In this document: positions 47,027-60,862 of the stretch, one piece after another | Position numbering within the stretch: position 1 is the first letter of the stretch | Layout of the letters: each line of letters opens with the position of its first letter | NCBI RefSeq assembly: GCF_002093975.1 | Contig: NZ_KZ084324.1 | Coordinates: 191,606 to 255,605 of the forward strand | Source of the DNA: Thermoactinospora rubra | GTDB taxonomy: Bacteria > Actinomycetota > Actinomycetes > Streptosporangiales > Streptosporangiaceae | Direction of reading: 5' to 3' | DNA: 64,000 nucleotides | Notes under the pieces: generated by a model | Database searches by the model: none | What the model saw: the letters and a program-made list of their open reading frames with translations, nothing else | Told to the model about the DNA's origin: nothing | Position numbers and translations under genes: made by a program

Positions 47027-47901
47027 GATTCGCTGCCATCACCGGTGTGACCACCCTGGCGCTTTTGGCAGCACCGGCTCCCGCGGCCCAGGCCGCGCCC
47101 CCTGAGGGCAAGTACTGGCAGGTGGCGGCCGTCTACAGCATGACGCATCCCCGCCCGGTGGGCAGCGGGTACTGGCTGGCCGAGCGCAGAGCCTCCACCG
47201 AGTGGCTGACCCCCGACGGCAGGGCCTGGCACGGCTATCGCCCGCTCGGCGCCCGGCCGCTGACGCCCAAGGACGAGGCCGCCTGGAAGGCCGACGGTTC
47301 GCCCACCTCGTGGAGCTACCGCACCGAAGGCATGAAGATCACGCTGTCGGCCGAGCCCGGCAAGGGCTACGTCAAGCAGGACGAGAACCGCCCGCGTGGC
47401 TTCGACCTCACGGGAGAGGCGAAGTTCGTCTCCTACCAGGAGCTCCAGGCGTTGCCGGCGCAACCCGCCGCCCTGCGCGCGCGCCTCGTCGCCGACATCA
47501 GGGAATGGATGGCCAAGGCCGCCGAGGAGGCCAAGACGACGGACCCGAAGGCCAAGCCGGAGGACTGGACCTCCCGCCTGGACTTCTACGTGGCGGAGGG
47601 GCTGGCGAGGTTGATGTACGCCAATCCGGTGCCCAAGCCGGTCCGCGCCGCGGCGTTCGAGGCGCTCAAGAGCACCAAGGGCGTGCAGGCGCCGGGCCGG
47701 GCCAAGGACCTGCTGGGGCGGGCCGGGCAGCGCCTGACGTGGAAGGACTCCGGCATCACCCGGACGGTCCTCGTGGACACCGGCACGATGACGCTGCTGT
47801 CGTCGAGCTTCGACGCCGCCGTCAAGGCCAAGTCGCGCGTGGAGACCTACACCAAGGTCGGCTGGACCGACGACGAGCCCGCGGTTCCCGCCGCCTCCTA
47901 G
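47023..47901 (+). CDS. secreted CU044_5270-type protein, related to its upstream neighbour
   Basis: A 292-residue exported protein with a cleavable signal (LLAAPAPAAQAA) instead of a membrane anchor. Its mature part matches the ectodomain of the upstream protein (TPKDEAAWKADGSPTSWSYR against TPEDEAAWRADGSPASWTFP), so the pair arose by duplication. It starts in the upstream stop (ATGA) and ends on the CTAG that also holds the stop of the convergent ATPase gene. Function unknown. Confidence 0.75.
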   Translation: MRFAAITGVTTLALLAAPAPAAQAAPPEGKYWQVAAVYSMTHPRPVGSGYWLAERRASTEWLTPDGRAWHGYRPLGARPLTPKDEAAWKADGSPTSWSYRTEGMKITLSAEPGKGYVKQDENRPRGFDLTGEAKFVSYQELQALPAQPAALRARLVADIREWMAKAAEEAKTTDPKAKPEDWTSRLDFYVAEGLARLMYANPVPKPVRAAAFEALKSTKGVQAPGRAKDLLGRAGQRLTWKDSGITRTVLVDTGTMTLLSSSFDAAVKAKSRVETYTKVGWTDDEPAVPAAS

Positions 47902-48671
47902 ACAGGGGCGTCCGGCAGGCAGCGGGGCGTGCCGTGCAGATCGTCGAGCACGACACGCCCCGCCACCCCGAAGACCTCGGCGAGCAGGCCCGTCGTGATC
48001 ACATCCTTCGGCTTGCCGTCGGCCCACACCCGGCCTTGGTGCAACGCGACGATGCGTTCGGCGAAGCGCGCGGCGTGGTCCAGCTCGTGCAGCACTGTCA
48101 CCACCGTCAGGCCACGCGCCGCGCGCAACGACCGCACGAGCTCCAGCACCTCCAGCTGGTGGCGGATGTCCAGGTGCGCGGTCGGCTCGTCGAGCAGCAG
48201 GACGCCCGTGTCCTGGGCGACCGCGAGGGCCAGCCGTACCCGCTGGCGCTCCCCGCCGGACAGCGTGTCCAGCACCCGGTCGGCGAGGTGCGCGACCCCG
48301 GTCAGCTCCAGGGCCTCATCCACCGCGTCCGGCTCCCCGAGCATGCCGAACGGCCCCCGATGCGGGTAGCGGCCCTGGCGCACGAGCTGCCGCACGGTGA
48401 GCCCGGGCACCGGCGGCAGGCTCTGGTGGAGGACGGCGACGCGACGGGCCACCTCGCGGCGCGACAGCGACGCCAGCGGCGTGCCGCCGAGGAGGATCCG
48501 CCCCGACGTGGGCTGGAGCAGGCCGGCCATCAGCCGCAGGAGCGTGCTCTTGCCGCACCCGTTGACCCCTGCCAGCGCCACGAACTCCCCGGGCGCGACC
48601 GTCAGGTCGACCCCCGCGAGGATGGGGCGCGGGCCGTACGAGAAGTGCAGGTCCCTGACCTCGATGCTCAT
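47898..48671 (-). CDS. metal-chelate ABC importer, ATPase
   Basis: A 257-residue ABC ATPase of the FecE/BtuD type: Walker A GVNGCGKST, Q-loop VAVLHQS, signature LSGGERQR, Walker B VLLLDEP, H-switch VTVLHELDHA. Such ATPases drive uptake of siderophore-metal complexes or cobalamin. It is the last gene of a five-gene leftward operon in which every junction is a 4-nt overlap (AztD-like protein, binding lipoprotein, two permeases, ATPase). The operon begins at the shared Zur-like box. Confidence 0.92.
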   Translation of the reverse strand: MSIEVRDLHFSYGPRPILAGVDLTVAPGEFVALAGVNGCGKSTLLRLMAGLLQPTSGRILLGGTPLASLSRREVARRVAVLHQSLPPVPGLTVRQLVRQGRYPHRGPFGMLGEPDAVDEALELTGVAHLADRVLDTLSGGERQRVRLALAVAQDTGVLLLDEPTAHLDIRHQLEVLELVRSLRAARGLTVVTVLHELDHAARFAERIVALHQGRVWADGKPKDVITTGLLAEVFGVAGRVVLDDLHGTPRCLPDAPV

Positions 48672-49630
48672 TGCGATCTTCCCAGTCTGGCGAGGACGGC
48701 GGCTCCGGCCAGGGCGGTGACCACCCCGGTGGGGACGCCGAGCCGATGCGTGTCGTCGAGCAGGTGCACGGCGAGCTGGGCCAGGGTGTCGGCGCCCGCC
48801 AGCGCCACGGCGCCGGCCACCGCGGCGGTGGGCACGCCGCCGCCGAGCCGGCGCGCGGCGTGCGGGGTGACCAGCCCGACGAAGGCGATGGCGCCGGACA
48901 GGCCGGCCGCTCCCGCGGTGAGGGAGATCGCCACGGCGAGCGCGACGCCCCGGCCCACGCCCGGGCGCAGCCCCAGCGCGGCGGCGTGCTCGTCGCCGGG
49001 CGCGAGGACGGCGAGCATCGCCGAACAGGCCCAGGCCACCGCGATCCATCCCGCGATCCACCACGACGTGAAGCCCAGGTGTTCCCACACCCGGCCCTCC
49101 ACCGAGCCGACGAGCCAGCGCAGGGCGTTGCCGAACCGGCTGGGCTGGTAGGCCAGCAGCATGGTGGCGATCCCGGCCAGCAGCGCGCTGCCGAGCAGGC
49201 CGTACACGACCAGTTGGACCGGATCGCGGCGGGCCGCGAACAGCCAGGTGATCCCGCCACCGAGCGCGCCGCCCAGCAGCGCGGCCGCCAACGCCCCGGC
49301 CGCCGAGTCCGCGGGCACGACGCCCAGCGTGAGACCGGCCAGGATGCCGAGCACCGCGCCCGGGTTGACGCCGGAGAACTCGGGCGCGGCCATCGGGTTG
49401 CGCAGCGCCGTCTGCAGGACGTATCCGGCCACGCCCAGGGCGGCGCCGGTGAGCACCGCGGTCAGCAGCCTGGGCAGGCCGAGCTCCCAGACGATCCGCT
49501 CCTCCAGGCCGCCCGCCGTACCGTCCAGCAGGCCGGTGAGCGCGGTGACGGGCCGCCCGGCGGCGAGGAGGTGCGCGGTCGCGACGGCCGCGAGCAGAAC
49601 AGCCGCCGCGACCGCACGCCCGGCGGTCAT
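48668..49630 (-). CDS. metal-chelate ABC importer, FecCD-type permease 2
   Basis: A 320-residue permease with about nine hydrophobic segments and the FecCD signatures RLLTAVLTGAALGVAGYVLQ, LRNPMAAPEFSGVNPGAVLG and FVGLVTPHAARRLGGG. It pairs with the other permease as a heterodimeric channel for a metal-chelate complex. The ATG at 49630 overlaps the upstream stop. Confidence 0.92.
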   Translation of the reverse strand: MTAGRAVAAAVLLAAVATAHLLAAGRPVTALTGLLDGTAGGLEERIVWELGLPRLLTAVLTGAALGVAGYVLQTALRNPMAAPEFSGVNPGAVLGILAGLTLGVVPADSAAGALAAALLGGALGGGITWLFAARRDPVQLVVYGLLGSALLAGIATMLLAYQPSRFGNALRWLVGSVEGRVWEHLGFTSWWIAGWIAVAWACSAMLAVLAPGDEHAAALGLRPGVGRGVALAVAISLTAGAAGLSGAIAFVGLVTPHAARRLGGGVPTAAVAGAVALAGADTLAQLAVHLLDDTHRLGVPTGVVTALAGAAVLARLGRSQ

Positions 49631-50583
49631 GCTCTCCTCACGAGGACGGCCGCCGCCACCACCCCGGCGAGCGCGGTCCACGCCCCGAGCGGCGTCTCGA
49701 CGGGCGCGAACGCCAGCCGGGCGGCCAGGTCCGCCGCCAGCGTGACGAGCGCCCCGAACGCGGCCGACCACGGCAGCCACGTCCGGGCGTCGGCCCGTGG
49801 CCGCAGCCGCCTGGCCAGGAGCGGAGCCAGAAGGCCCACCCAGGCGACGGGCCCGCAGGGACCGGTCACGCAGCCGACCAGCAGGGCCGCGACGGTGAGC
49901 ACGCCGAGCCTGGCGCGGTGCACCCGGCTGCCGAGCGAGGCCGCCGCGTCGTCGCCGAGCCGGAGCAGGCCCAGTGCGGGCACGCACAGCACCACGAGCG
50001 GCAGCGCGGCGGCCAGCCACGGCAGCGTCCGGCCCGCCTGCTCCCACATCAGCCCGGACAGGCTGCCCACGAGGTAGCGGAACAGCATGTCGTACTGGAG
50101 CCGGTCGGCGGTCGCCATGACGGCCAGCAGCAGCGCCTGGATCGCGCTGGAGACGGCCGCGCCCACGAGCAGCACCCCGCCCGCCGTCCTGGCCGCCCGG
50201 GCGGCGGCGAGGGTGAGCAGCCCGCCGGCGACGGCGCCCAGCAGCCCCATGACGGGGTACAACGGGAAGGGCACCGGCAGCGCCCACACCACGCACACGC
50301 CCACGGCGAGCGCGGCGCCCGTGGAGACGCCGATCATCTCGGGGACGGCCAGCGGGTTCCGCAGCGATTCCTGCAGCAGGAGCCCCGCGGCGCCGATCGC
50401 CGCCCCGCCCGCCAGGCCGACCAGCACGCGGGGGACCCGCAGCTCCCAGACCACGACCCCGGCGACGGCGTCGCCGGTCAGGAGGTCCTGCGGCGCGACG
50501 AACGGCGTGCCCAGGCACAGCCCGGCCAGCCCCAGCGCGCCCAGCCCGATCCCCGCCGCCCACGGCGCGACCGGGATGCTCAC
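49627..50583 (-). CDS. metal-chelate ABC importer, FecCD-type permease 1
   Basis: A 318-residue permease of the FecCD family: RVPRVLVGLAGGAAIGAAGLL, LRNPLAVPEMIGVSTGAAL and PVAWVGLLAPLLARRL. It is a diverged paralogue of permease 2. The GTG at 50583 sits in the GTGA overlap with the binding-protein stop codon. Two different permease genes and a lipoprotein are the usual make-up of Gram-positive siderophore importers. Confidence 0.92.
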   Translation of the reverse strand: MSIPVAPWAAGIGLGALGLAGLCLGTPFVAPQDLLTGDAVAGVVVWELRVPRVLVGLAGGAAIGAAGLLLQESLRNPLAVPEMIGVSTGAALAVGVCVVWALPVPFPLYPVMGLLGAVAGGLLTLAAARAARTAGGVLLVGAAVSSAIQALLLAVMATADRLQYDMLFRYLVGSLSGLMWEQAGRTLPWLAAALPLVVLCVPALGLLRLGDDAAASLGSRVHRARLGVLTVAALLVGCVTGPCGPVAWVGLLAPLLARRLRPRADARTWLPWSAAFGALVTLAADLAARLAFAPVETPLGAWTALAGVVAAAVLVRRA

Positions 50584-51566
50584 CCCGCGGCCTTGGCGAG
50601 CGCCTCGTCGAGGATGACGCCGAACGCCCGGGTGCCCCGGCCCGACGCCCACAGCTCCGGCTGCACCTCGAAGACCTTGCCGGACGCCACGGCCGGGACG
50701 CGCCTCCACACCGGGTTGTCCTTGAGATGCTCGCTCACCGAGGTGCCGAAGGACTGGACGAAGATCACCTCGGGGGCCTTGGCGAGGATCTCCTCCAGGC
50801 TGTAGGCCTGGGCGGTCTCGAAGCCGCCGCCCTTGCTCGGCCACGGGTAGGCGAAGAACCGGGACATGAAGTGGCCGAGCACGTCGTCGGTGGTGTTCAC
50901 GCCCACCGAGGTGCCGCCGTACATCGCCAGCACCGGCTTCCTGTCCAGCCCCGCCGCCTTGGCGCGGGCCATGCCGTCGGCCAGCTTCGCCCGGAACCGG
51001 CTCTCGGCCGCCGCCTGCTGCCGCCCGCGGTCGGTCAGCCGGGCGAGCGCCCGCAGGTAGCCGATGGAGTGCTCGTAGGACTTCACCTCCACCACCCACA
51101 GCGGCGCGAACTTCTCCACCGCGGTCCTGAGCTGGTCGTGCACCCCGGCCAGGCCGATCACCAGGTCCGGCCGGGCCTCGGCGATCTTGGAGACGTCCTC
51201 GCCGCCGAAGCTGCCGGGGATGACCGGCACCTTGGCCCCCTCCGCGCCCAGGTAGTCGGGCCGGGACAGGAGCTTGGGCGTGGTCGTGGCGACGGGCTTG
51301 AGCCCGAGCTCGACGAGGGCGTCGTCGCACAGGCCCGTCAGGCAGACGATCCGCTCGGGTTTCCTTGGGAGGGTGATGGTCCTGCCGTGGGGGTCGGTGA
51401 CCGTCAGCGCCGCGCTGACGGGGGTCACCTGTGCCGCCGGGTCCGCCTGCGGGGTGGTGGCGGCCTGCGGGCTGGTGTCGGTCTGCGGCTTGCTCTGGCC
51501 GCCGCAGGCCGACACCAGCGCGAGCGCCACGAGTGCGATCAGGTGCTTGCTCATTACCCGGCTCAT
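50580..51566 (-). CDS. metal-chelate ABC importer, substrate-binding lipoprotein
   Basis: A 328-residue lipoprotein (leader ending LVSAC, Cys21) of the BtuF/FhuD/TroA-like fold: TVTDPHGRTITLPRKPERIV, ARPDLVIGLAGVHDQL, and an AYSLEEILAKAPEVIFVQS segment are the conserved binding-lobe parts. This class binds metal-chelate complexes (siderophores, cobalamin), not free metal ions. The ATG at 51566 lies in the overlap with the propeller gene; an internal ATG at 51554 is also possible. Confidence 0.9.
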   Translation of the reverse strand: MSRVMSKHLIALVALALVSACGGQSKPQTDTSPQAATTPQADPAAQVTPVSAALTVTDPHGRTITLPRKPERIVCLTGLCDDALVELGLKPVATTTPKLLSRPDYLGAEGAKVPVIPGSFGGEDVSKIAEARPDLVIGLAGVHDQLRTAVEKFAPLWVVEVKSYEHSIGYLRALARLTDRGRQQAAAESRFRAKLADGMARAKAAGLDRKPVLAMYGGTSVGVNTTDDVLGHFMSRFFAYPWPSKGGGFETAQAYSLEEILAKAPEVIFVQSFGTSVSEHLKDNPVWRRVPAVASGKVFEVQPELWASGRGTRAFGVILDEALAKAAG

Positions 51567-52834
51567 CGCCCGACCTTGTCCACGGTGTCGTGGCCGGGGA
51601 CGACGACCGTGACCGCGCCGCCGCCCTCCAGCGAGGTCGGCGTGGCGATGGTGCCCACCACCTTGCCGAGGTCGGGGGAGATGACCGAGATCTTGCCGGT
51701 GCCGCCGCCGGTCACGTAGGCCAGCACGCCGGAGGGGTCCAGGGCGATGCGGCGCTTCTGGGCGGCCCACGGCGACTGCCCGGGAACCGGCCCGCCCGGC
51801 AGCGGCGGCAGCTGCACGCGGGTGGTGACCTGGCCGGTCTTCACGCTCACGAAGGCGACCTGGTCGCCGCCGGGCCGGTGGAGGACGTACCCGGCGTACC
51901 GGTCCGAGAGCCCGTGCCGGAACAGGAACCCGGTGCCCAGCTCCGCCGTGGTCGTCCGGCCGCTGTCGGGGACGACCGTGAAGGCGTCGTGCTTCCAGTT
52001 CTGCCAGTCGTCGCCCGACTCGTCGGAGGTGTAGGTGACGAGCTTCTCGCCGGTCACGCGGACGTAGTAGGCGCGCCCGCTGTCCGGCCACGGCACGGTC
52101 CTGACGGGCTGGAGCCTGCCGTCCACGACCCGCGCCGTGTCCAGGCCCGCGTCGGTGGCGCCGAGCACCAGGCCGCCCGCGTGCGCCGCCTCGCCGTGCC
52201 CGTGCTCGCCGGTCGCCAGCGTGCTCGTGGGCTCCAGGTGCGCGCCCGGGTTGGCCAGGATGCCGGCGATGGGGAAGGTCTCCAGCTCGCCGTCGCCCCG
52301 GTGCACGACCGTGCCGCCGCTGACGACGACACCCGGGTGCTCGCTGTCCACCTCGATCGTGGCGGGCCGGTACGTCGTGAGGTCGACGACGGTCAGGGTG
52401 CCGTGCGGCTCCTCCTCCGCCGGCTCCTCGTGGTCGTGCGCCCCGGCCGCCGCCACGACGGCGTAGCGGCCGGTCTCGTCGGCGGCGATGTGGGTGGGCT
52501 CGCCTTCGGGGAGCCTGGCCGTTCCCACGACCTTGGGCGTGCCGCCCACCTGCAGGGCGACCAGCTCGCCGGCCGCCTCGTCCACGAACAGCACCCGGCC
52601 GTCGCGCAGCGGGAGCATCCCCGCGTGGTCGGCGAAGGTCCGCCCGGTGATCGTGGCCAGCTTCTTGTTCGACGGGACCGCGTACACGTGCACGCTTCCC
52701 GCGGCGGCGTCGGCCACCACCAACCGGGCCGCCGGCGGGAACCGCCCGCCGGCGTCCGCCGAGGCGGGCTGGGCGTGCAGGGCGGCAAGGGCCAGTACGG
52801 CTACCGCGCCGGCCGAGAGGGCGCTGCGGCGCAT
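51563..52834 (-). CDS. AztD-like secreted beta-propeller, probable zinc-binding protein
   Basis: A 423-residue exported protein: signal peptide cleaved after ASA near residue 26, then repeated propeller blades (RLVVADAAAGSVHVYAVP, ADETGRYAVVAAAG, LDPSGVLAYVTGGGTGKISVI). Two loops are rich in metal ligands: AHDHEEPAEEEPH (His133, His135, His144) and GEHGHGEAAH (His211, His213, His218). This blend of propeller and His/Glu loops resembles AztD, a zinc metallochaperone that hands zinc to an ABC importer. It heads the importer operon, 28 nt downstream of the Zur-like box. ATG at 52834 has AGGAGG upstream; a longer reading to 52879 starts inside the box. Confidence 0.75.
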   Translation of the reverse strand: MRRSALSAGAVAVLALAALHAQPASADAGGRFPPAARLVVADAAAGSVHVYAVPSNKKLATITGRTFADHAGMLPLRDGRVLFVDEAAGELVALQVGGTPKVVGTARLPEGEPTHIAADETGRYAVVAAAGAHDHEEPAEEEPHGTLTVVDLTTYRPATIEVDSEHPGVVVSGGTVVHRGDGELETFPIAGILANPGAHLEPTSTLATGEHGHGEAAHAGGLVLGATDAGLDTARVVDGRLQPVRTVPWPDSGRAYYVRVTGEKLVTYTSDESGDDWQNWKHDAFTVVPDSGRTTTAELGTGFLFRHGLSDRYAGYVLHRPGGDQVAFVSVKTGQVTTRVQLPPLPGGPVPGQSPWAAQKRRIALDPSGVLAYVTGGGTGKISVISPDLGKVVGTIATPTSLEGGGAVTVVVPGHDTVDKVGR

Positions 52835-52861
52835 GGATCCTCCTAGGGTTGAGCTCTGGAC

Positions 52862-52880
52862 AATGAAAATCATTATCATT
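52862..52880. promoter_or_regulatory. Zur-like (Fur-family) operator between divergent operons
   Basis: AATGAAAATCATTATCATT is a palindrome with 8 of 9 base pairs matching around C52871. Its core TGAAAATCATTATCA (52864-52878) matches 13 of 15 positions of the TGAAAAT-N-ATTTTCA pattern described for actinobacterial Zur. It is 28 nt from the propeller start and 64 nt from the peptide start, so one bound repressor could silence both operons. Iron control in actinomycetes usually uses DtxR-type sites of quite different sequence, which favours zinc. Confidence 0.75.
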
Positions 52881-52943
52881 TACGCTCTCGTGGCAGCAAG
52901 GGGCAGGACCGGACTTGTCCCTCAAATCACGAAAGGAGAGCTG

Positions 52944-53066
52944 ATGGAGCAGTTCGACGAGGTCCCGGTGTTCTCGCCGGTCGTCACGGCCACCCAGCTG
53001 GCCCCGGCGCACCCGACGTGCAACCACGCCCTGGTGGCCGACCTGTTCGACGACGACCAGGCCTGA
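52944..53066 (+). CDS. candidate TOMM/RiPP precursor peptide (40 residues)
   Basis: MEQFDEVPVFSP starts a 40-residue peptide behind the strong ribosome-binding sequence GAAAGGAGAG (52931-52940). Residues 1-20 could be the leader; the centre HPTCNH (23-28) contains the only Cys (26), one Thr, and two His, and the C-terminus DLFDDDQA is acidic. The cyclodehydratase encoded downstream would act on Cys26 (and possibly Thr25 or other Ser/Thr) to give a thiazoline, which the flavin enzyme could oxidise to thiazole beside two His residues, a plausible zinc site. It could instead be a regulatory leader peptide. First gene of the rightward operon. Confidence 0.65.
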   Translation: MEQFDEVPVFSPVVTATQLAPAHPTCNHALVADLFDDDQA

Positions 53067-53073
53067 CCCGCTC

Positions 53074-53108
53074 GTGGTGCCGCGCCGTCCGCGGGCGCGC
53101 GGCACCAC
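53074..53108 (+). terminator. hairpin between peptide gene and modification genes
   Basis: GTGGTGCCGCGC (53074-53085) and GCGCGGCACCAC (53097-53108) form a perfect 12-bp stem with an 11-nt loop, 7 nt after the peptide stop. In RiPP operons such a structure often works as a partial terminator or RNA-stabilising end, giving more precursor transcript than enzyme transcript. Confidence 0.6.
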
Positions 53109-53130
53109 CCCGGACCGGAAAGGACCGCGC

Positions 53131-53838
53131 ATGACCCTCGCGCCCGGTGTCTCGATCTTCGACCTGGACGGCACGGCCGTGCTGCGCACGCCCGACGGGG
53201 AGTTCCTCGCCGTCAACGCCGAGGTCGGCCCGGATCTCGGCGGTCTCGCGCCCGCCGTGGCCGAGGCCTTCTCCCGCGCCGGATTCCTGGCTCCGGACAG
53301 CGAGTGCGCGCCGGCGGCCGTGGCGGTGGCCGGGGACGGGCTGATCGCGCAGTCGCTGGCCGGCCTGGTGGACCGCACGCCGTTGAGTCTCGTGCCGTCG
53401 ATCGAGGAGGCCGACGTGGTGAGCTGGGCCTGCGACGGGCTGCCGCCGCAGCGGGAATGGGCCGCCCTCGACGCCGAAGTGGGCCGCATCGCCTGGCAAC
53501 GCTGCTCGGTCGAGGGCGCGACCGCCGTCATCGAGCCCATCGCCGTCGCCCCGGGGGACGTCACGCACGAGCACGTCCGCCTGCGCCGCCTGGCCGCCTC
53601 CGACAGCCCCGGCCACCTGGCCGCCTACTGGGCCACCACGCCGCTGCACGCAGCCCCGGCGGTGACCCCGGTTACCGCCGCGTTCGTCGCCTCCCTGCTC
53701 GCCGCCGACCTCCTGGCCTGGGCGCACGGCCACCCGCGCACCCGCACCCTGCGCCTGGCCGACCTGCGGACCCAGCGCGTCGCCGACCACCCGATCCTGC
53801 CCGTCCCGCCCCACGACCCCCGCCGGGAGGTCCGGTGA
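53131..53838 (+). CDS. ThiF-like TOMM cyclodehydratase partner (leader-binding protein)
   Basis: A 235-residue protein resembling the small Ocin-ThiF-like (cyclo_dehyd_2) partners of YcaO enzymes: an N-terminal part VSIFDLDGTAVLRTPDGEFL, a degenerate dinucleotide-fold motif VAVAGDGLIAQSLAGL (residues 65-80), and a C-terminal HPRTRTLRLADLRTQRV. Such proteins bind the leader peptide and present it to the YcaO enzyme. It lacks zinc-binding Cys pairs found in larger E1-like proteins. Ribosome-binding GGAAAGGA precedes the ATG; it overlaps the hydrolase gene by one base. Confidence 0.75.
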   Translation: MTLAPGVSIFDLDGTAVLRTPDGEFLAVNAEVGPDLGGLAPAVAEAFSRAGFLAPDSECAPAAVAVAGDGLIAQSLAGLVDRTPLSLVPSIEEADVVSWACDGLPPQREWAALDAEVGRIAWQRCSVEGATAVIEPIAVAPGDVTHEHVRLRRLAASDSPGHLAAYWATTPLHAAPAVTPVTAAFVASLLAADLLAWAHGHPRTRTLRLADLRTQRVADHPILPVPPHDPRREVR

Positions 53839-55211
53839 TGACGGTGCTCCGCGAGGGGTTGCGCACGCCCGGCGGCCTGGTCTGCGACGCCGTCCTGCCC
53901 GCCGCGACCGGCCGCTGGCCCGTGCTCGCGATCCGCACGCCGTACGGCAGGAGCCGCCACCTCGCCGAGGCCCACGGCTGGGCCCGCAGGGGCATGGCCG
54001 CCGTGGTCCAGGACGTGCGAGGCCGTCACGAGTCGCCGGGCGAGTGGCGCCCCTACGCCCACGAGCACCACGACGGCCCCCTGTTCGCCGCATGGCTGCG
54101 CGACCAGCCTTGGTGCGACGGCCGGGTGATCGCCTACGGCTCCTCCTACGCCGCCCACTGCGCTCTCCACATGGACGCCGACGCGATCGTGGCCGCCGTG
54201 CCGGCGCTGGGGCCGGCCGAGACCGCGCGGGAGGCGACGGGCGTGCCGAGGCTGTACTCGCCCGTGTGGTGGTGGAGCACGTACGGCGCCTGCCGTACCG
54301 AACGGCCCGGCCTGCTGGACACGCGCCTCGCCCACGACCCGCTCGCCCTCCACGAGCCGCCCGCGCGCATCCCGGCCCGCCTCGGGCTGGACCTGCCGGG
54401 CCTGGAGGAGGCGTGGCGAGCGCCGCGCGAACCGGCGATCTGCGGCCGGGTGCCGCTGCTGAGCCTCGCGGGGCTGTACGACCCCTTCCTGGACGCGGCC
54501 GTCGGCCTGTGGCGGGGCTGGAGCGGCCCGGCCGAGCTGGTGGCCGGACCCTGGCAGCACGATCTGGGCCTGATCCACCGCGAGCGCAACGGCGACCGCC
54601 CGCTGCTGCACGCCGAGAAGGTGACCCGGTTCGTCACGCGCTGGGTGGACCGCGTGCTGGCCGGAGAGGAGCCGTCCGGCGCCACGCTCGCCGTCGAGTC
54701 GACACGCGACTGGATCGGCTCCCTGGGCGGGGACGCGCTGGAGGTGCCCTTGAAGGGCGAGGGCCGCTTCGAGGCCGACCCCGCCGACCCGTTCCCCTCG
54801 GCGATGGGCCCCGTCGACGTGTCGCGCCCGCGCGCCGACGCCGTCGTCGCCGTGAGCGAGCCGTACGAAGGCGTCGCCGCCGGGCGGCCCCGCGTGACCT
54901 TCCAGGGGCACTTTCCGGGGCACATTCAGGGGCGCATTCAGGGGCACTGGGTGGCGCGCCTGTCGGAGGCCCTCCCCGACGGCAGGGCCGTCCAGCTCGG
55001 CCACGCCGTGGGCGAGACGACCGACCTGACGCTCCCCACGATCGTGCACCGCTTCGCGCCCGGCTCCCGCCTGCGCGTCGAGATCGCGGCGCACCACTTC
55101 CCCCTGCACGTGCGGCACCCGCACACCGACGACGACCCGCTGACCGCGACGACGCTGCGCCCTTCCGTCCGGGAGGTCGCCGGCGTCCGCCTGACCCTGG
55201 AGACCCCGTGA
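53838..55211 (+). CDS. CocE/NonD-family serine hydrolase
   Basis: A 457-residue alpha/beta hydrolase of the X-Pro dipeptidyl-peptidase (CocE) family: oxyanion and nucleophile region AYGSSYAAHC (Ser103 likely nucleophile), Asp215 in LAGLYDPFLDA, His241 in AGPWQHDLG, and a C-terminal jelly-roll domain from about 290. Residues RTPYGRSRHLAEAHGWARRG are a conserved family opening. In this operon it may remove the leader peptide or an N-terminal segment, or hydrolyse an ester or amide during maturation. It starts in a TGATGA overlap with the ThiF-like gene and ends in a GTGA overlap with YcaO. Confidence 0.85.
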   Translation: MTVLREGLRTPGGLVCDAVLPAATGRWPVLAIRTPYGRSRHLAEAHGWARRGMAAVVQDVRGRHESPGEWRPYAHEHHDGPLFAAWLRDQPWCDGRVIAYGSSYAAHCALHMDADAIVAAVPALGPAETAREATGVPRLYSPVWWWSTYGACRTERPGLLDTRLAHDPLALHEPPARIPARLGLDLPGLEEAWRAPREPAICGRVPLLSLAGLYDPFLDAAVGLWRGWSGPAELVAGPWQHDLGLIHRERNGDRPLLHAEKVTRFVTRWVDRVLAGEEPSGATLAVESTRDWIGSLGGDALEVPLKGEGRFEADPADPFPSAMGPVDVSRPRADAVVAVSEPYEGVAAGRPRVTFQGHFPGHIQGRIQGHWVARLSEALPDGRAVQLGHAVGETTDLTLPTIVHRFAPGSRLRVEIAAHHFPLHVRHPHTDDDPLTATTLRPSVREVAGVRLTLETP

Positions 55212-56491
55212 TCGTGGACTCTGTGATCATTAGCCCGGTGTGCGGCGTGATCAAACGCATCACGAAATATCCGCAGCTGGACGGCATGCCGGACAGCTAC
55301 CGCTGCCTCATCGCCGAGGTCGCCGACACGCGCCGCATCGGCCTCTGGCTGGCCGACCGGATCGCCGCCGGGACCTCCTTCGGCGACGAGGAGCAGGCCA
55401 GGCACGGCGCCATCGGCGAGGCCGTCGAGCGGTACTGCGGCAACAACATCCCCCGCGGCCTCCTGCGCGCGAGCGTCGCCGACCTCGGCGACCGGCCGCA
55501 CCTCGGCCCCGCCGACCTGCCCTCCTTCAGCGCCGACCAGTACGGCAGGCCCGGCTTCCCGTACCGACCCTGGGAGGAGGACGAGCCGATCCTGTGGGCG
55601 CGCGGCGTGGACGGCGTGCTGGTGCCGGGCTCGTGGACCTACCTCAACTGGCACCAGGGGCCCCGCCGCGCCGAGCCACGCCACCATCACCTCAACTACG
55701 CCGGGATCGCGTGCGGCGTCGGCCTCGAGGACGCCGCTCGGCGCGCCCTCCTGGAGGTGATCGAGCGCGACGCCGTGACGCTCTGGTGGCACCTCGGCCT
55801 CCCGACCCGCGGCATCCGCGTCTCCTCGGTTCCCGGGCTGGCCGAGGCGTGGGCGGGCGCGCGGCTGGAACTGCACCTGGTGGAGGTGCCGTGCGAGTTC
55901 GGGGTGCCCGTGGTCGCCGCGCTGGCCTACGACCCGGTGCTGCGGATCCCGGCGGCCGGGTTCGCCTGCCGTACCGATCCGGTGGCGGCCTGCCTGAAGG
56001 CCGCGCAGGAGGCGGTGCAGGTGTGGATCGCCGCGCGTGGCCTGCTGGAGGAGGACGGGCCGGCCTTCGACGCCATGCGGCGCGGGGTCCTGGCCCGGCA
56101 CTCCTACCTGCCGTGGCGCGCCGACCGCCGCTACCTCGACTCGGCGGGCGAGGGCTTCTCTGCCGTCCGCGACCTGGCCGCCCAGGCCCAGGTGTGGCTC
56201 GACGAGCGGCTCCACGGCCTGCTCTCGCGCTTCACCGCCCTGCCGCCGGCCGACGTGACCGAGATGGCCTCCGGCCCGCCCCGGCTCGGCGGCCGCCGCG
56301 TCGTCACCGTCGACCTGACCACCTCCGACATCGCCGAGACGCCGCTGCGCGTGGCCCGGGTCGTGGTCGCCGGGCTGCTGCCGAACAGCCCCGCCGCGTT
56401 CCCCTATCTCGGCTCCCCCCGCTGGAAACACGTCGCCGATCTCCACGGCGTCTCCGGCGCCGTCGACCCGACCCCGCCGCCGCACCTATGA
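55208..56491 (+). CDS. YcaO cyclodehydratase (TOMM D protein)
   Basis: A 427-residue YcaO protein. The ATP and magnesium motifs are intact: EAVER (Glu71, Glu74), LLEVIERDA (Glu183, Glu186, Arg187, Asp188) and AAQEAVQ (Gln267, Glu268, Gln271). The C-terminus ends VDPTPPPHL, a proline-rich tail like the PxPxP tail needed by azoline-forming YcaO enzymes. It should activate peptide backbone amides with ATP and convert Cys/Ser/Thr to azolines, with the ThiF-like protein as partner. The start is the GTG at 55208 inside the hydrolase stop; the ATG of the next gene overlaps its own stop. Confidence 0.92.
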   Translation: MIVDSVIISPVCGVIKRITKYPQLDGMPDSYRCLIAEVADTRRIGLWLADRIAAGTSFGDEEQARHGAIGEAVERYCGNNIPRGLLRASVADLGDRPHLGPADLPSFSADQYGRPGFPYRPWEEDEPILWARGVDGVLVPGSWTYLNWHQGPRRAEPRHHHLNYAGIACGVGLEDAARRALLEVIERDAVTLWWHLGLPTRGIRVSSVPGLAEAWAGARLELHLVEVPCEFGVPVVAALAYDPVLRIPAAGFACRTDPVAACLKAAQEAVQVWIAARGLLEEDGPAFDAMRRGVLARHSYLPWRADRRYLDSAGEGFSAVRDLAAQAQVWLDERLHGLLSRFTALPPADVTEMASGPPRLGGRRVVTVDLTTSDIAETPLRVARVVVAGLLPNSPAAFPYLGSPRWKHVADLHGVSGAVDPTPPPHL

Positions 56492-57582
56492 GCACGCCGG
56501 CAGTACGGCAGGCCGAGGCCGCCGCCCGCGCCCCCTTCGACGGCGCCCCGCCCACGCCGGGCACGCAGCCGCGTCCCCGCTACCCCGGCCGCCCCGCCGA
56601 GGTGGCTCCCCGGGTGCTGGAGGTCGTGGACCTGGCCCTGGGCGTCTCCCGAGGCCGCCTGCGCCGGGTGCCCTCCGCGGGCGCCCTCTATCCGGTGGAC
56701 GCCCACGTCATGGCCGGCGGGCGCCTGCTGGCCTTCGATCCGTTCCGCCACGTCCTGCGGGATCGGGGGCTCTCGTGCTCAGCCGTGCCGGGGGCCGTCG
56801 TGCTGCTGTCGCTGGAGCCGTCGCGCACGGTGTGGAAGTACGGCTCCCGCAGCCTGCCCAGCCTGCTCCTCGACCTCGGGCACGCGGCGGGCTCCCTGGC
56901 CGCGGCCGCCGCGTGCCTGGGCGTGGAGTGCCGCGTCTCGCTGGACGTGGACGCCCGCCGGATGGCCGTGCCGTACACCTTCGCCGCCGTCTGGCTCGCC
57001 CCTCCCGCCGCCACAGACGTGCTTCTCTGCGCCGGTACGGCCTGGAGGGGTACGGCGGAGCCCGGCCACACGCTCATCCGCCAAGCCCTCGACGACCTCG
57101 CCGAGGGCGGCACCACCTGGGAAGCCCCCGGCATGCCGCCCTTCCCGAGGCACGTCATCGAGTCGCGCCGCAGCGCCCCGCCGCCCTTCACCGGCGAGCT
57201 GGACCGCACCGACCTCCACGCCCTGCTCGACGGCACCCCGCTGATCGCCGCCACCCGCGACGGCCTGACCACCGCCGACGGCCCCGTCGGACGCGGCGAC
57301 GCCCGCCCGGCCCTGGCCGCCTGGGCCACCGGTCAAGCCTTCCTGGCCGACGCGGCCGCCGTCCTCCTGGTCACCGCCGACCTGACCGGCTACCGGGCCG
57401 CCTACACCAGGGCCGGCCTGCTCGTGCACCGCGCCCTGCTCGCCGCCCACGCCCGCGGCCTGCCCGCCCGGCCCGTCGGCAGCTGGGGCCCGGCCGACCT
57501 CGGCGCCGCCCTCGGCCGGCCGCCCGGCACCCACGTGATCGTCCACGGAGCCGCCATCGGCGGCGGGAAGGACACCAAGTGA
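56488..57582 (+). CDS. SagB-type flavin azoline dehydrogenase
   Basis: A 364-residue nitroreductase-fold protein of the SagB/ThcOx group. FMN-binding RRVPSAGALYPVDAHV (residues 59-74) and SLPSLLLDLGHAAGSLAAAA are family landmarks. It would oxidise azolines made by the YcaO enzyme to aromatic azoles. A second, weaker nitroreductase-like half lies after about residue 225 (RRSAPPPFTGELDRTDLHALL), as in the tandem SagB-like proteins. It overlaps both neighbours by 4 nt. Confidence 0.87.
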   Translation: MSTPAVRQAEAAARAPFDGAPPTPGTQPRPRYPGRPAEVAPRVLEVVDLALGVSRGRLRRVPSAGALYPVDAHVMAGGRLLAFDPFRHVLRDRGLSCSAVPGAVVLLSLEPSRTVWKYGSRSLPSLLLDLGHAAGSLAAAAACLGVECRVSLDVDARRMAVPYTFAAVWLAPPAATDVLLCAGTAWRGTAEPGHTLIRQALDDLAEGGTTWEAPGMPPFPRHVIESRRSAPPPFTGELDRTDLHALLDGTPLIAATRDGLTTADGPVGRGDARPALAAWATGQAFLADAAAVLLVTADLTGYRAAYTRAGLLVHRALLAAHARGLPARPVGSWGPADLGAALGRPPGTHVIVHGAAIGGGKDTK

Positions 57583-59207
57583 TCATCCATCGCCGCCTGC
57601 TGCACCTGGCCGGCAGCGTCAAGGGCCCGATCGCCGCCTGCGTGGGGCTGGGCCTGCTGGTGAGCGCCGCCTACGTGGCGCAGGCCGTACTCCTCGCCGC
57701 CGCCCTGGCCGCCCTCGTGCGCGGCGACACCGCCGCGGTGGTCCGCCTGCTGGCCTGGACGTTCGCGGTCATCGCCCTGCGGGCGGCCCTGCTGTGGGCG
57801 AGGGAGACGGTCACGGTGTGGGCGGGCGCGCTGATCAGGGCCAGGCTGCGCGACCGGCTCGTCGCCCACCTGGACCGCCTCGGCCCGGCGCACCTCACCG
57901 GCGCCCGCACCGGCCACGTCCAGACCACGCTCGTGGACGGCGTGGAGGGCCTCGACCCGTATTTCAGCCGCTACCTTCCCCAGGTCGTGGTCACCTTCTG
58001 CGTGCCGGTGGGCCTGGTCGCCTGGCTGTTCACGGTCGACTCCGCGGCCGCCGCCGTCCTGGCCGTCGCCGTCGCGGGGGTGCTGATCATCCCGCGCTTC
58101 TGGGACGCGACGCTGCTCAGGAGGGGGCGCACGCGCTGGACCGCGTTCGCCGAGCTGGCGGCGGACTACCTGGAGGCGATGCAGGGCATGGCGACGCTGC
58201 GGGCGTTCGGCGCCGTCCACAGGCTGGGGACGAAGCTCGCGACCCGGGCGCACGACCTCTACGTGACCACGATGCGCCAGCTCAAGGTGTCGCTGGTGGA
58301 GACAGGGGTGAGCGCGTTCCTCATCCAGGCGGGCACCGCGGGCGCGATCCTGGCCGCCGCCACCGCGAGCACCCCATGGGGCGTGTTCGCGGTGCTCGTC
58401 ATCACGGTGGAGTGCTTCCGCCCCGTGAAGAACCTCTCCGAGTACTGGCATGCCGGATATCTCGGGATCACGGCGGTCGACGGCATCGAGGAACTCCTCT
58501 CCGCCACGCCCGCCGTGGCCGACACCGGCACCCGGCGGCGCTTCCCCGCCCCTCCGGACATCACGTTCGACGACGTCACCTTCGCCTACCCGGGATCCGG
58601 CCGCCCCGCCGTCCACCGGGTGACCTTCACCGTCCCGGCCGGGCGGACCGTCGCCCTCGTCGGCCCCTCCGGCGCGGGCAAGACCACCCTCGCCGCCCTC
58701 CTCCAGCGCCACTACGACCCCGACCAGGGCCGCATCGCCATCGGCGGCGTGGACATCCGCGACCTGACGCTCGACACCCTGCGCCGCGGGATCGCGGTCG
58801 TCGCCCAGGACACCTACCTCTTCCACGGCACCGTCGCCGAGAACCTCCGCCTGGCCCGCCCGGACGCCACCGACGAGGAGCTGGTCGCCGCCGCCCGGCT
58901 GGCCGCCGCCCACGACTTCGTCGCCGCGCTCCCCGAGGGGTACGGCACGCGCCTCGGCGAGCGCGGCGCGACCCTGTCCGGCGGGCAGCGCCAGCGCCTG
59001 GCCATCGCCCGCGCCCTGCTGGCCGACGCGCCCGTGCTGGTGCTCGACGAGGCGACCTCGCACGTGGACGCGCGCACCGAGCAGGCCCTGGCCGAGGTAC
59101 GGCGGGGCCGTACCTGCCTGATGATCGCCCACCGGCCCGACACCATCCGCCAGGCGGACCACGTCGTGGTGCTGGAGAACGGAACCGTCCTGGAGGCAGT
59201 CGCATGA
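57579..59207 (+). CDS. ABC exporter half-transporter 1
   Basis: A 542-residue protein: six-helix membrane domain (about 15-300) fused to an ATPase with Walker [11 protein letters not shown]-loop [11 protein letters not shown], signature LSGGQRQR, Walker [12 protein letters not shown]. The membrane domain resembles the CydD/CydC type of thiol or peptide exporters. With the following gene it probably forms a heterodimer that exports the modified peptide. GTG start in the SagB stop codon overlap. Confidence 0.9.
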
Positions 59208-60862
59208 ACCCGTCCATCCGCTGGCTGGCCGGGGCGGTCGGCTCGCACCGCCGGGCCTTCCTGTCCACGCTCGCCGCCAACCTGCTGGGCCAGCTGGCCG
59301 TCCTGGGCGCCGCGGTGACGGGCGCCTGGCTGGTCGGCCGGGTGATCAGCGGGCAGACGGCGCCGTTCGACCTCGTGGGCGCGCTGCTCGGCGGCCTCGT
59401 CGTCGTGGCCACGCTGGCCGCCTGGTGGGAGACGTACGTCGCGCACGACCTGGCCTATCTGGTGCTGGCCCGGCTGCGCGGCCAGGTCTACGACGCGATC
59501 GCCCGCATCGCCCCCGCCCGGCTGCTGGGCCGCCGCAGCGGCGACCTGTCGGCGGCGGTGCTGTCGGACATCGAGACCCTCGAATGGCTCTTCGCCCACA
59601 CGCTCGCCCAGCTCGTCACCGCGGCCACCGTGCTGGTCGCCGGAAGCGCGGCCGCCGCGCTGATCGACCCGCTGCTCCTGGCCGTCTCGCTGCCGCTGGC
59701 GGCGTGCGTGCTGACCGTGCCGCTGTGGCTGCGCAAGGCGTCACGCAAGCACGGCGACGAGTTGCGCGCGGCCACCGCCGAGCTGACGTCCGACGTGGTG
59801 GACACCGTGCAGGGCATGCGGGAGCTGGCCGCCTTCCGGGCCGTCGGCCGCCGCAGGGAGCTGCTGGCCGCCAAGACCCGCAGGCTCGCCCGCGCCCAGG
59901 CGGCCAACGCGGCGCGCGGCGGCCTGGAGGCGGCGGTCACCGACCTGCTCATCGCGGTCGCCGCCGCCGGAACCCTGCTGCTGGTGGCCACGGTCATCAG
60001 GTCGCCGGCCGACGCGCCGGTCGCCATGGTGCTCGCGGCCAGCTCGCTCGGGCCGGCCGCGCAGGTGGCGCTGCTGCTCAAGGAGTACGGCACGCTGCGC
60101 GCGGCGGCCGAGCGCGTGCACACGCTGGTGACCGCCCCGGCCAACGTCGCGCCGGTGTCCTCGCCGCGACCGGTCGGGGACAGACCGGACGTCGTCTTCG
60201 AGGACGTGCGGTTCCGCTACACGCCCGACGGGCCCGAGGTGCTGCGGGGGGTCTCGTTCCGCGTGCCGTACGGGAAGACCGTGGCTCTGGTCGGCGCGTC
60301 GGGGGCGGGCAAGTCGACGTGCGTGTCGCTGCTGCTGCGGTACTGGGACCCGGACGCGGGGCGGATCCTGGTCGGCGGGGTGCCGTTGCCGCAGGTGGAG
60401 GACCTGCACCGCCATGTGACGGTCGTGCCGCAGGACGTGCACCTGTTCGCGGGGACCGTCGCGGAGAACGTACGGCTGGGCGCGCCGGACGCCGACGTGG
60501 CGAGCGCCCTGCGGACCGCGCAGCTCGCGATGGATCCGGAGATCTCGGTCGGCGAGCGGGGAGTGACGCTCTCCGGCGGCCAGCGGGCCCGGGTGGCCGT
60601 CGCCCGGGCACTGGCCACCGGCGCGCCCGTGCTCGTGCTCGACGAAGCGGTGGCCAACCTCGACACCGGCAACGAGACGCGCCTGGCCGAGGCGCTGGAG
60701 GAGGCCGCCGAGGGCCGCGCCACGCTGGTCGTCGCGCACCGCCTGTCCACCATCCGCCGGGCCGACCACATCGTGCTGCTGGAGGACGGCCGGGTCGTGG
60801 CCGAGGGCTCCTACGCCGAGCTCGCCGACCGCCTATCGCACCTGGTCACAAGCGGGTCGTAA
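59204..60862 (+). CDS. ABC exporter half-transporter 2
   Basis: A 552-residue ABC half-transporter with six membrane segments and an ATPase: Walker A GASGAGKST, Q-loop VVPQDVHLFAG, signature LSGGQRAR, Walker B LVLDEAVANLD, H-switch VAHRLSTI. Both catalytic sites of the pair look intact. It is the last gene of the rightward RiPP operon, overlapping its partner by 4 nt. The next gene, an aminotransferase 10 nt downstream, has its own unrelated function. Confidence 0.9.
   Translation: MNPSIRWLAGAVGSHRRAFLSTLAANLLGQLAVLGAAVTGAWLVGRVISGQTAPFDLVGALLGGLVVVATLAAWWETYVAHDLAYLVLARLRGQVYDAIARIAPARLLGRRSGDLSAAVLSDIETLEWLFAHTLAQLVTAATVLVAGSAAAALIDPLLLAVSLPLAACVLTVPLWLRKASRKHGDELRAATAELTSDVVDTVQGMRELAAFRAVGRRRELLAAKTRRLARAQAANAARGGLEAAVTDLLIAVAAAGTLLLVATVIRSPADAPVAMVLAASSLGPAAQVALLLKEYGTLRAAAERVHTLVTAPANVAPVSSPRPVGDRPDVVFEDVRFRYTPDGPEVLRGVSFRVPYGKTVALVGASGAGKSTCVSLLLRYWDPDAGRILVGGVPLPQVEDLHRHVTVVPQDVHLFAGTVAENVRLGAPDADVASALRTAQLAMDPEISVGERGVTLSGGQRARVAVARALATGAPVLVLDEAVANLDTGNETRLAEALEEAAEGRATLVVAHRLSTIRRADHIVLLEDGRVVAEGSYAELADRLSHLVTSGS

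What the first reader, a model, noticed from the sequence alone, without database searches (positions are those of the whole stretch)
47898..60862. Candidate zinc-regulated ribosomal metallophore (TOMM) with matching export and import systems
Two divergent operons share one Zur-like operator. Rightward: short Cys/His peptide, leader-binding ThiF-like protein, CocE hydrolase, YcaO cyclodehydratase with full ATP-site residues and proline tail, SagB-type dehydrogenase, two ABC exporters. Leftward: an AztD-like His-rich secreted protein and a complete chelate importer (BtuF/FhuD-type lipoprotein, two FecCD permeases, ATPase). All junctions except the peptide gene are 1-4-nt overlaps, so each half is one transcription unit. 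Seen: the genes, overlaps, operator. Known: YcaO/SagB make azoles; FecCD systems import chelates; AztD-type proteins handle zinc; Zur represses zinc uptake. Inferred: the product is an azole peptide secreted under zinc starvation that returns as a zinc complex. I am not aware of a described zincophore made by YcaO chemistry.
Basis: partly seen in the sequence, partly recalled or inferred. Interest (0 to 1): 0.93.

Follow-up and report, generated by a model that had tools for sequence, protein, structure and literature searches.

The report
Zinc-controlled streptamidine-family zincophore gene cluster
This stretch holds a divergent relative of the gene cluster that makes streptamidine, a widespread bacterial peptide of unknown purpose, and here and in most relatives examined the start regions carry a sequence matching the box of the zinc repressor, so the peptide is likely made when zinc runs short and would help the cell collect zinc.

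Summary
The genes, overlaps and operator are there. They form a divergent member of a published family, the ami clusters of streptamidine (Russell 2021, PMC8442711). That paper saw the importer linkage, guessed at metals, and reported no metal binding (zinc included) and no starvation phenotype; the word Zur is absent from its main text.

New here is the regulation. The operator matches the published Streptomyces Zur motif. In the 8.2-Mb genome only four sites lie within one mismatch of the palindrome (0.17 expected): one is this operator, one sits 20 nt before a znuA-type gene whose operon ends in a Fur-family gene. The box precedes the precursor gene in 69 of 76 relatives at two mismatches or fewer. 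Some loci also hold COG0523 GTPases and spare L28/S14 ribosomal proteins. AmiX has the fold of the zinc chaperone AztD.

This clade has a new predicted core, HPTCNH, and a KY dyad in its dehydrogenase where relatives have HY or RY. Zinc control is likely; zincophore function is inferred; azole versus amidine is open.

The parts
52864..52878 (.). Zur-box-like operator TGAAAATCATTATCA (7-1-7 palindrome) between the two divergent operons
   Evidence: exact match to TGANAATNATTNTCA and to the published S. coelicolor Zur motif tGaNNatSatNNtCa (PMC5472717, passages); 4 sites within 1 mismatch in 8.2 Mb, one 20 nt before znuA; 0.0025 exact and 0.17 one-mismatch sites expected
52944..53066 (+). amiA-like precursor peptide, 40 aa, predicted core HPTCNH, follower ALVADLFDDDQA
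   Evidence: six precursors with invariant HPTCNHALVADLF: window, L035, L036, L038, P0122 and P0121; ALV shared with streptamidine precursors; no NCBIfam hit
53131..53838 (+). amiB homologue: leader-binding / E1-like partner of the YcaO (235 aa)
   Evidence: sub-threshold TIGR03882 (22.7 of 36.9 bits); 32-53% identity at the amiB position in named relatives where a match was found; none found in eight of the 80
53838..55211 (+). amiC homologue: CocE/NonD, S15-type hydrolase, GSSY nucleophile motif
   Evidence: TIGR00976 129 bits, PF02129 101 bits; 35-66% identity in named relatives with a match; motif serine near residue 103
55208..56491 (+). amiD homologue: standalone YcaO with proline-rich C-terminus (PTPPPHL)
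   Evidence: PF02624 152 bits, TIGR03604 198.8 bits, below cut-off; 327 relatives; 51-86% identity to the other 24 rows of A1
56488..57582 (+). amiE homologue: SagB/McbC-like flavin dehydrogenase with KY dyad at residue 117
   Evidence: PF00881 38 bits, TIGR03605 sub-threshold; KY in the window clade, HY in Streptomyces, RY in 10 of 12 other loci where the motif was found
57579..59207 (+). amiT1 homologue: ABC half-transporter
   Evidence: best NCBIfam CydD, below cut-off; best half-transporter in PDB YbtP (6p6i_A), then MsbA
59204..60862 (+). amiT2 homologue: ABC half-transporter
   Evidence: CydC/MsbA-like, below cut-offs; CydC first and YbtQ lower among half-transporters in PDB
51563..52834 (-). 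amiX homologue: AztD-like beta-propeller with three invariant histidines (H70, H115, H213); secretion-signal-like N-terminus by eye
50580..51554 (-). amiF-type (FecB/FhuD-like) substrate-binding lipoprotein
   Evidence: PF01497 66.6 bits; profile closest to YfiY and siderophore-binding proteins
49627..50583 (-). FecCD permease
   Evidence: PF01032 209.9 bits
48668..49630 (-). FecCD permease
   Evidence: PF01032 182.7 bits
47898..48671 (-). FecE-type importer ATPase
   Evidence: translation; no family scan of its own; 47-75% identity in the 65 full-flank loci with all four importer genes

Best explanation
The window holds a divergent ami (streptamidine-type) peptide cluster whose two divergent operons share one Zur-box-matching palindrome, and it is predicted to be switched on by zinc starvation and likely to make a secreted peptide that brings zinc back through the FecCD-type importer. 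How it would work: (1) With zinc plentiful, Zur bound at 52864-52878 blocks both operons; when zinc falls both fire (inferred from the box). (2) AmiB presents the 40-residue precursor to the YcaO enzyme AmiD, the S15-type hydrolase AmiC frees the N-terminus, and AmiE oxidises a ring (inferred from the 2021 genetics). In this clade the predicted core is His-Pro-Thr-Cys-Asn-His; a His-Pro amidine, a Cys thiazole, or both are possible (inferred). (3) The half-transporter pair moves the product across the membrane, probably outward (direction not shown). (4) The product binds zinc through its two histidines and modified residues, and the lipoprotein-FecCD-ATPase system takes the complex up (inferred). 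(5) The AztD-like AmiX, which here begins with a secretion-signal-like stretch, takes or hands over zinc outside the membrane (inferred from fold). Streptamidine itself would then be a trimmed remnant left after uptake. That would explain why the purified compound binds no zinc, why the importer genes are needed for it to appear, and why a dehydrogenase is essential although streptamidine is not oxidised.
For: Same box 20 nt before a znuA-type gene followed by an ABC ATPase gene, a permease gene (both by reading the ORFs) and a Fur-family gene; 0.17 one-mismatch sites expected in the genome. Box within 300 bp upstream of amiA in 39 of 76 loci at <=1 mismatch, 69 of 76 at <=2, 76 of 76 at <=3; outside Streptomyces 23 of 25 at <=2; letter-shuffled promoters 0 of 385 at <=2. 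A box before the importer's lipoprotein gene in 56 of 68 usable loci at <=2. Iron-type DtxR box absent: best 8-10 mismatches, no better than shuffled. All four importer genes in 65 of 70 full-flank YcaO loci. COG0523-type GTPase in 13 of 70, spare L28 in 7, S14 in 6 of 70, several behind boxes of their own. AmiX fold: AztD first. Chelate-type binding-protein profile. Published genetics: amiF1-F4 and amiE essential, amiT1-T2 important (PMC8442711).
Against: The 2021 paper reports no binding of Fe, Co, Cu, Mg, Mn, Ni or Zn by purified streptamidine and no phenotype of the amiD mutant under metal starvation. amiX was not needed for production there, and a Ser3-to-Cys core change abolished products, which does not favour a simple switch to thiazole. 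Streptamidine was made in substantial amounts, with no mention of zinc depletion in the text I read, so repression may be leaky or the media poor in zinc. Zur binding is not tested here; the Fur-family gene beside znuA scores below every NCBIfam cut-off and higher with iron-type Fur models than with the Zur model. The znuA site misses the published motif by one base, and that looser motif has seven exact sites in this genome. In five of 70 loci the importer is incomplete or unlike (L039, L064, L072, L081, L105); 17 of 70 lack an amiT1 match at >=50% identity and 10 an amiE match, so export and oxidation by these genes are not universal. Permuted-palindrome controls averaged 2 of 76 but one reached 49 at <=2 mismatches: related promoters are not independent. 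The core register of this clade against streptamidine is ambiguous by two residues.
Confidence: 0.57

Rival explanations
1. The cluster is a Zur-regulated ami cluster, but its peptide is not a zincophore: it is a signal or a competitor-directed compound made when zinc is scarce, and the FecCD importer serves another chelate or senses the peptide.
For: Purified streptamidine bound no metal and the mutant had no starvation phenotype (PMC8442711). Loss of the importer genes abolished production, as if import feeds back on production. Zur boxes only argue for timing.
Against: No antibacterial or antifungal activity was found in 2021. Importer, AztD-like protein and, in some loci, neighbouring zinc-sparing ribosomal proteins and COG0523 GTPases point to zinc supply. 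The predicted core keeps two histidines as H-x-[ST]-x-x-H in 71 of 76 loci.
Confidence: 0.25
2. The peptide is a metallophore for another metal (copper, cobalt, nickel or iron) and Zur control is incidental or reflects cross-regulation.
For: FecCD systems commonly import iron or cobalamin chelates (established knowledge); binding-protein profile is nearest to iron-siderophore proteins.
Against: No iron-type box; CAS assay negative in 2021; the box is shared with the znuA-type operon, and zinc-linked genes are neighbours in some loci.
Confidence: 0.08
3. One reading: a new azole (TOMM) zincophore family unrelated to any described cluster.
For: Window precursor has no NCBIfam match and has Thr-Cys plus a KY-type dehydrogenase.
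Against: Same gene set as the published ami clusters. YcaOs at 50-52% identity (L050, L074, L047) lie beside precursors of the kind that hits the streptamidine model.
Confidence: 0.05
4. The half-transporters are the importer of the metal complex (YbtPQ-like) and the FecCD system recovers something else, so the directions are swapped relative to the best explanation.
For: Best solved half-transporter for AmiT1 is YbtP at 240.6 bits, ahead of MsbA at 235.3; for AmiT2 CydC scores 201.7 and YbtQ 189.2 or less.
Against: Scores are nearly tied with exporters; loss of amiT1-T2 lowers but does not abolish product; a binding lipoprotein goes with the FecCD system only.
Confidence: 0.1

Closest known systems
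Streptamidine (ami) gene clusters, Streptomyces albidoflavus J1074 (Russell et al. 2021, PMC8442711)
   Same: gene set amiA-B-C-D-E-T1-T2, four FecBCDE-type importer genes, amiX; ALV in the precursor; YcaO with proline-rich tail
   Different: Predicted core HPTCNH, not HLSATH; follower ALVADLF, not SNALVENPF; no match to the streptamidine model NF040714; amiX and importer form one operon facing away from amiA with one shared operator; secretion-signal-like start of AmiX; AmiE has KY, not HY
AztD zinc metallochaperones (P. denitrificans, C. koseri; PMC6689063, passages and section 6 read)
   Different: 15% identity, no sequence match; no AztC/ZnuA gene in the two operons described here; zinc sites not shown
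Klebsazolicin and bottromycin (YcaO amidines), as described in PMC8442711
   Same: YcaO-made amidine is the known chemistry of the streptamidine family
   Different: no zinc link known to me (recalled); different precursors
Zur-regulated zincophores: the S. coelicolor cluster called 'enterobactin-type zincophore' in PMC5472717; opine zincophores and EDDS (recalled)
   Same: Zur-controlled synthesis of a small zinc ligand
   Different: to my knowledge (recalled) none is a YcaO-modified ribosomal peptide

Membership tests
ami / streptamidine-type cluster family (PMC8442711) | gene set amiA, B, C, D, E, T1, T2, F1-F4 (amiX partial) | tested here: met
   all twelve present
ami / streptamidine-type cluster family (PMC8442711) | YcaO of the ami clade, standalone, proline-rich C-terminus | tested here: met
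   50-52% identity to YcaOs of L050, L074 and L047, whose precursors are of the kind that hits the streptamidine model; PTPPPHL end. No tree built.
ami / streptamidine-type cluster family (PMC8442711) | short precursor with conserved ALV next to the YcaO genes | tested here: met
   A29 L30 V31 (and F10, F35) invariant in 18 aligned precursors
NF040714 streptamidine equivalog (product streptamidine itself) | precursor over the model cut-off of 40 bits | tested here: not met
   window and four clade precursors give no hit at E<=10; three precursors of other loci give 56.6-66.4 bits. Not filed as a streptamidine equivalog.
ami / streptamidine-type cluster family (PMC8442711) | amidine product | not testable with these tools
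   needs mass spectrometry and NMR
Zur regulon | Zur box at the promoter, shared with the genome's znuA-type operon | tested here: met
   the znuA site misses the published 15-bp motif by one base
Zur regulon | Zn-Zur binding and zinc-dependent repression | not testable with these tools
   needs gel shift and transcript measurement
AztD | AztD-type beta-propeller fold | tested here: met
AztD | sequence similarity to AztD (BLASTP/HMM) | tested here: inconclusive
   no AztD among matches of phmmer (E<=1) or of a 14-row profile (E<=10); NCBIfam none
AztD | site 1: three pore histidines; site 2: two His, one Asp of a hairpin and a C-terminal His (PMC6689063) | tested here: inconclusive
   H70, H115, H213 invariant in 14 of 14, equivalence to His124/167/218 not superposed; site 2 not located
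SagB/McbC azoline dehydrogenases | catalytic KY dyad | tested here: met
   WKYGSR with K at residue 117
SagB/McbC azoline dehydrogenases | family model TIGR03605 over its cut-off | tested here: not met
   31.4 bits against 78.4; hence called SagB-like, not filed as SagB
zincophore | product binds zinc and supports uptake | not testable with these tools
   published test on streptamidine was negative

The most novel reading that the evidence does not exclude
The ami family is the first group of ribosomally made zincophores: Zur-controlled, YcaO-modified peptides that leave the cell, load zinc and return through their own FecCD importer. Streptamidine, isolated in 2021 and found not to bind metals, is the spent, trimmed remnant. 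The window clade is an azole-bearing branch (HPTCNH core with a KY dehydrogenase) in which a thiazole may take the place of the amidine as ligand.
Probability: 0.33. Interest if true: 0.92.

Novelty: new variant of a known kind. Interest (0 to 1): 0.73.

Why it matters
Clusters of this family occur in over 230 species (PMC8442711), yet streptamidine has no known function and its discoverers' metal tests came out empty. A conserved Zur-type box at its promoters says when to look (zinc starvation) and which metal to test, and the requirement for the importer and dehydrogenase suggests that the molecule tested may not have been the working form. That makes an orphan natural-product family directly testable with strains that already exist. 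If right, YcaO peptides would join opines and non-ribosomal peptides as another route to zinc-scavenging molecules.

Tried and rejected
Rejected: iron control. A DtxR/IdeR-type box (consensus recalled) is absent from 77 amiA promoters (best 8-10 mismatches, no better than shuffled). Rejected: an undescribed family. Considered and left open: direction of AmiT1/T2 and core register (the gapless alignment puts Pro-Ala-His-Pro-Thr-Cys under the streptamidine core, whereas invariance of HPTCNH across six precursors with variable residues before it, and the Ala|His boundary, favour HPTCNH). Not used as evidence: the other two sites within one mismatch in the genome (C2:235900, C20:98748). As I read the ORFs they lie by a holin-like gene and by sugar-kinase/RpiR-type genes, with no zinc link that I could see. 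The looser published motif gave seven exact sites in this genome and 2-7 in each of five relatives, most not followed up.

Searches that led nowhere: papers with YcaO+Zur+zinc+actinobacteria (one paper, listing only), YcaO/SagB/CocE/zinc (seven listed), AztD+YcaO (none), Zur regulon/Streptomyces/AztD (20 of 67 listed), zincophore+RiPP (ten listed), Zur+RiPP+Streptomyces+zinc (five listed); none is on this by title and abstract start. Streptamidine is in 12 held papers. Two of these also hold 'zinc': PMC8442711, and PMC12982422, where zinc concerns thiolutin (passages). A mixed search for streptamidine, Zur, zincophore and metallophore listed 20 of 111 papers, none of the 20 holding streptamidine. 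So 'Zur control of ami clusters is not in print' rests and on held open-access papers only. Supplementary files of PMC8442711 could not be read, so whether its 22 motif-less precursors include HPTCNH peptides is unknown. Its main text was read in parts 1-3 of 5 plus term passages; the remaining parts were not read.

Dropped rows: four of 80 loci (L056, L097, L104, L112) have no amiA; in each the held DNA ends before or within the upstream genes. L037 was dropped from the importer-promoter count because its lipoprotein gene runs off the locus and the window computed for it was wrong; seven more loci gave no usable importer promoter. The 80 loci were the best 80 of 216 confirmed.
Full report
What is there. 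One search confirms twelve open genes in two divergent blocks around a 15-bp palindrome at 52864-52878. Junctions are 1-4-nt overlaps except AmiX to lipoprotein (8-nt gap) and peptide to AmiB (64-nt gap). Pfam confirms YcaO, S15-type hydrolase, nitroreductase fold, binding protein and FecCD permeases. NCBIfam leaves the leader-binding domain, the SagB call and the SagD-type YcaO call below their cut-offs.

Identity. A whole-collection scan gave 80 named loci encoding the YcaO (best 80 of 216). The window's own genes were compared with them. Translating the space before AmiB gave a short precursor in 76 of 80 loci; the four misses are cut by the ends of the held DNA. Three precursors typed from these loci hit NCBIfam NF040714, streptamidine, at 56.6-66.4 bits. 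The published streptamidine cluster has the same gene set: precursor amiA, amiB, hydrolase amiC, YcaO amiD, dehydrogenase amiE, transporters amiT1-T2, importer amiF1-F4 and amiX (PMC8442711, text parts 1-3 of 5 and term passages read). The window precursor itself does not hit the streptamidine model, so it is a divergent branch and not a streptamidine equivalog.

The branch. Cores next to the family's ALV are HDSASH 33, HNSASH 13, HLSATH 9, HASASH 8, THSAGH 5, HASATH 4, HNSATH 1 and HPTCNH 3 of 76. The window and two more precursors (P0121, P0122) share the last type, giving six in all, in which HPTCNHALVADLF does not vary while the residues before it do. The gapless alignment would shift the register by two residues, so the core is a prediction. 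The dehydrogenase motif is WKY or RKY in the window, L035, L036 and L038, HY in the Streptomyces loci, and RY in 10 of 12 other loci where the motif was found, the other two (L101, L113) being HY; in 10 loci no motif was found. The 2021 paper calls KY the catalytic pair of McbC. A Cys-bearing core and a KY enzyme thus go together, but within one group of close relatives, so this counts as a single event. The same paper found no product when Ser3 of the streptamidine core was changed to Cys, which warns against assuming a simple switch to thiazole.

Zinc control. The published S. coelicolor Zur motif is tGaNNatSatNNtCa (PMC5472717, passages read) and the window palindrome fits it fully. The genome has four sites within one mismatch of TGANAATNATTNTCA; the reversed control pattern has none. 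From the window's dinucleotide composition 0.0025 exact and 0.17 one-mismatch sites are expected. One site is the ami operator. Another lies 20 nt before the likely start of znuA, which is followed by an ABC ATPase gene, a permease gene (both by reading the ORFs) and a Fur-family gene. It is the only PF01297 protein of the genome; its best NCBIfam model is AztC, below cut-off. This znuA site misses the published motif by one base, and the looser published motif has seven exact sites in the genome. The other two near-exact sites have no zinc link that I could see. The Fur-family gene is taken as zur by its place; its NCBIfam scores are all below cut-off, with iron-type Fur models above the Zur model, which does not settle the name.

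Conservation. Within 300 bp before amiA the box occurs at <=1 mismatch in 39 of 76 loci, <=2 in 69 of 76, <=3 in 76 of 76. Letter-shuffled promoters gave 0 of 385 at <=2. Outside Streptomyces the count is 23 of 25, over 18 genus labels. Permuted-palindrome controls (60 used) average 2 of 76 but one reaches 49 at <=2, a warning that related promoters are not independent. Before the importer's lipoprotein gene the box is found at <=2 in 56 of 68 loci after L037 is removed; the three relatives with the window's gene order (L035, L036, L038) count as misses there because their box lies before amiX. Of 30 fetched ZnuA loci from 17 relatives, 10 hold a site at <=2 mismatches anywhere in about 3.8 kb (place not checked one by one), so Zur boxes there are either more degenerate or not all ZnuA genes are controlled. 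A DtxR-type iron box is absent.

Neighbours. Full-flank loci number 70. All four importer genes are within the locus in 65, amiX in 55, amiT1 (>=50% identity) in 53, amiE in 60. COG0523-type GTPases occur in 13, a second L28 in 7, an S14 in 6 of 70 (families by Pfam on representatives), several behind boxes of their own. In Actinomadura hibisca (L038), one of the closest relatives, a GTPase gene next to the importer has an exact box. Zinc-free spare ribosomal proteins and COG0523 proteins are classic zinc-starvation genes (established knowledge; PMC6689063 section 6 also links COG0523 with zinc).

Mechanism. The best reading is zinc-starvation synthesis, modification, export, zinc binding and re-uptake. 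Against it stand the published negative metal-binding test, which included zinc, and the unchanged amiD mutant. Both can be reconciled if streptamidine is what remains after uptake and trimming: its three masses are a nested series HLSATH, HLSAT, HLSA; the importer genes are needed for it to appear; and amiE is needed although streptamidine is not oxidised, for which the authors themselves list loss of an oxidised part as one option. This is an inference. The single mutant may have been covered by another zinc importer.

Transport direction is open: AmiT1 is nearest to YbtP among solved half-transporters, with MsbA close behind, and AmiT2 to CydC with YbtQ lower. The lipoprotein profile is nearest to siderophore-binding proteins, which fits a chelate and not free zinc.

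Verdict. Observation right, zinc control well supported, family already published, function inferred. New points are the Zur link of an orphan peptide family, the AztD fold of AmiX, and a new predicted core with a matching dehydrogenase change. On recheck the confidence in the best explanation was lowered by 0.01 because the looser motif's other sites and the Ser3-to-Cys result are now told.

Noticed in passing
L068:16762-19003, L063, L079, L094, L050, L088, L103: In these Streptomyces loci the ami genes lie near a COG0523-type GTPase and an extra ribosomal protein L28 (with S14 in all but L103), several behind a Zur-like box: a local zinc-starvation island.
   Followed up: partly
L041:3083-3886, L059:5326-6096, L095:3090-3884, L111:5266-6036: A TIM-barrel protein (AP_endonuc_2 family; below the Pfam cut-off in L041, above it in L059) sits in 9 of 70 ami loci and has a Zur-like box just upstream in these four; role unknown.
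   Followed up: no
G000:C2:235900-235914 (L116): A second exact Zur-like palindrome in the genome lies at the start of a holin-like gene; no zinc gene seen nearby.
   Followed up: partly
L091 against L085: The record titled Kitasatospora arboriphila has the same ami locus layout and boxes at the same positions as Williamsia muralis L085, so the record is probably mislabelled or contaminated.
   Followed up: no
window 47023-47901: A protein of 292 aa with a signal-like start and no Pfam family over cut-off converges on the importer ATPase gene with a 4-nt tail overlap.
   Followed up: no
G000:C2:355276-356274 and C26:2011-2982: Two more YcaO genes in the same genome, not closely related to this one.
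   Followed up: no
L042, L086, L103 and other aligned Streptomyces loci: AmiX of Streptomyces shows no secretion signal by eye, while those of the window, Planobispora and Allokutzneria do, so the protein may work on different sides of the membrane.
   Followed up: no
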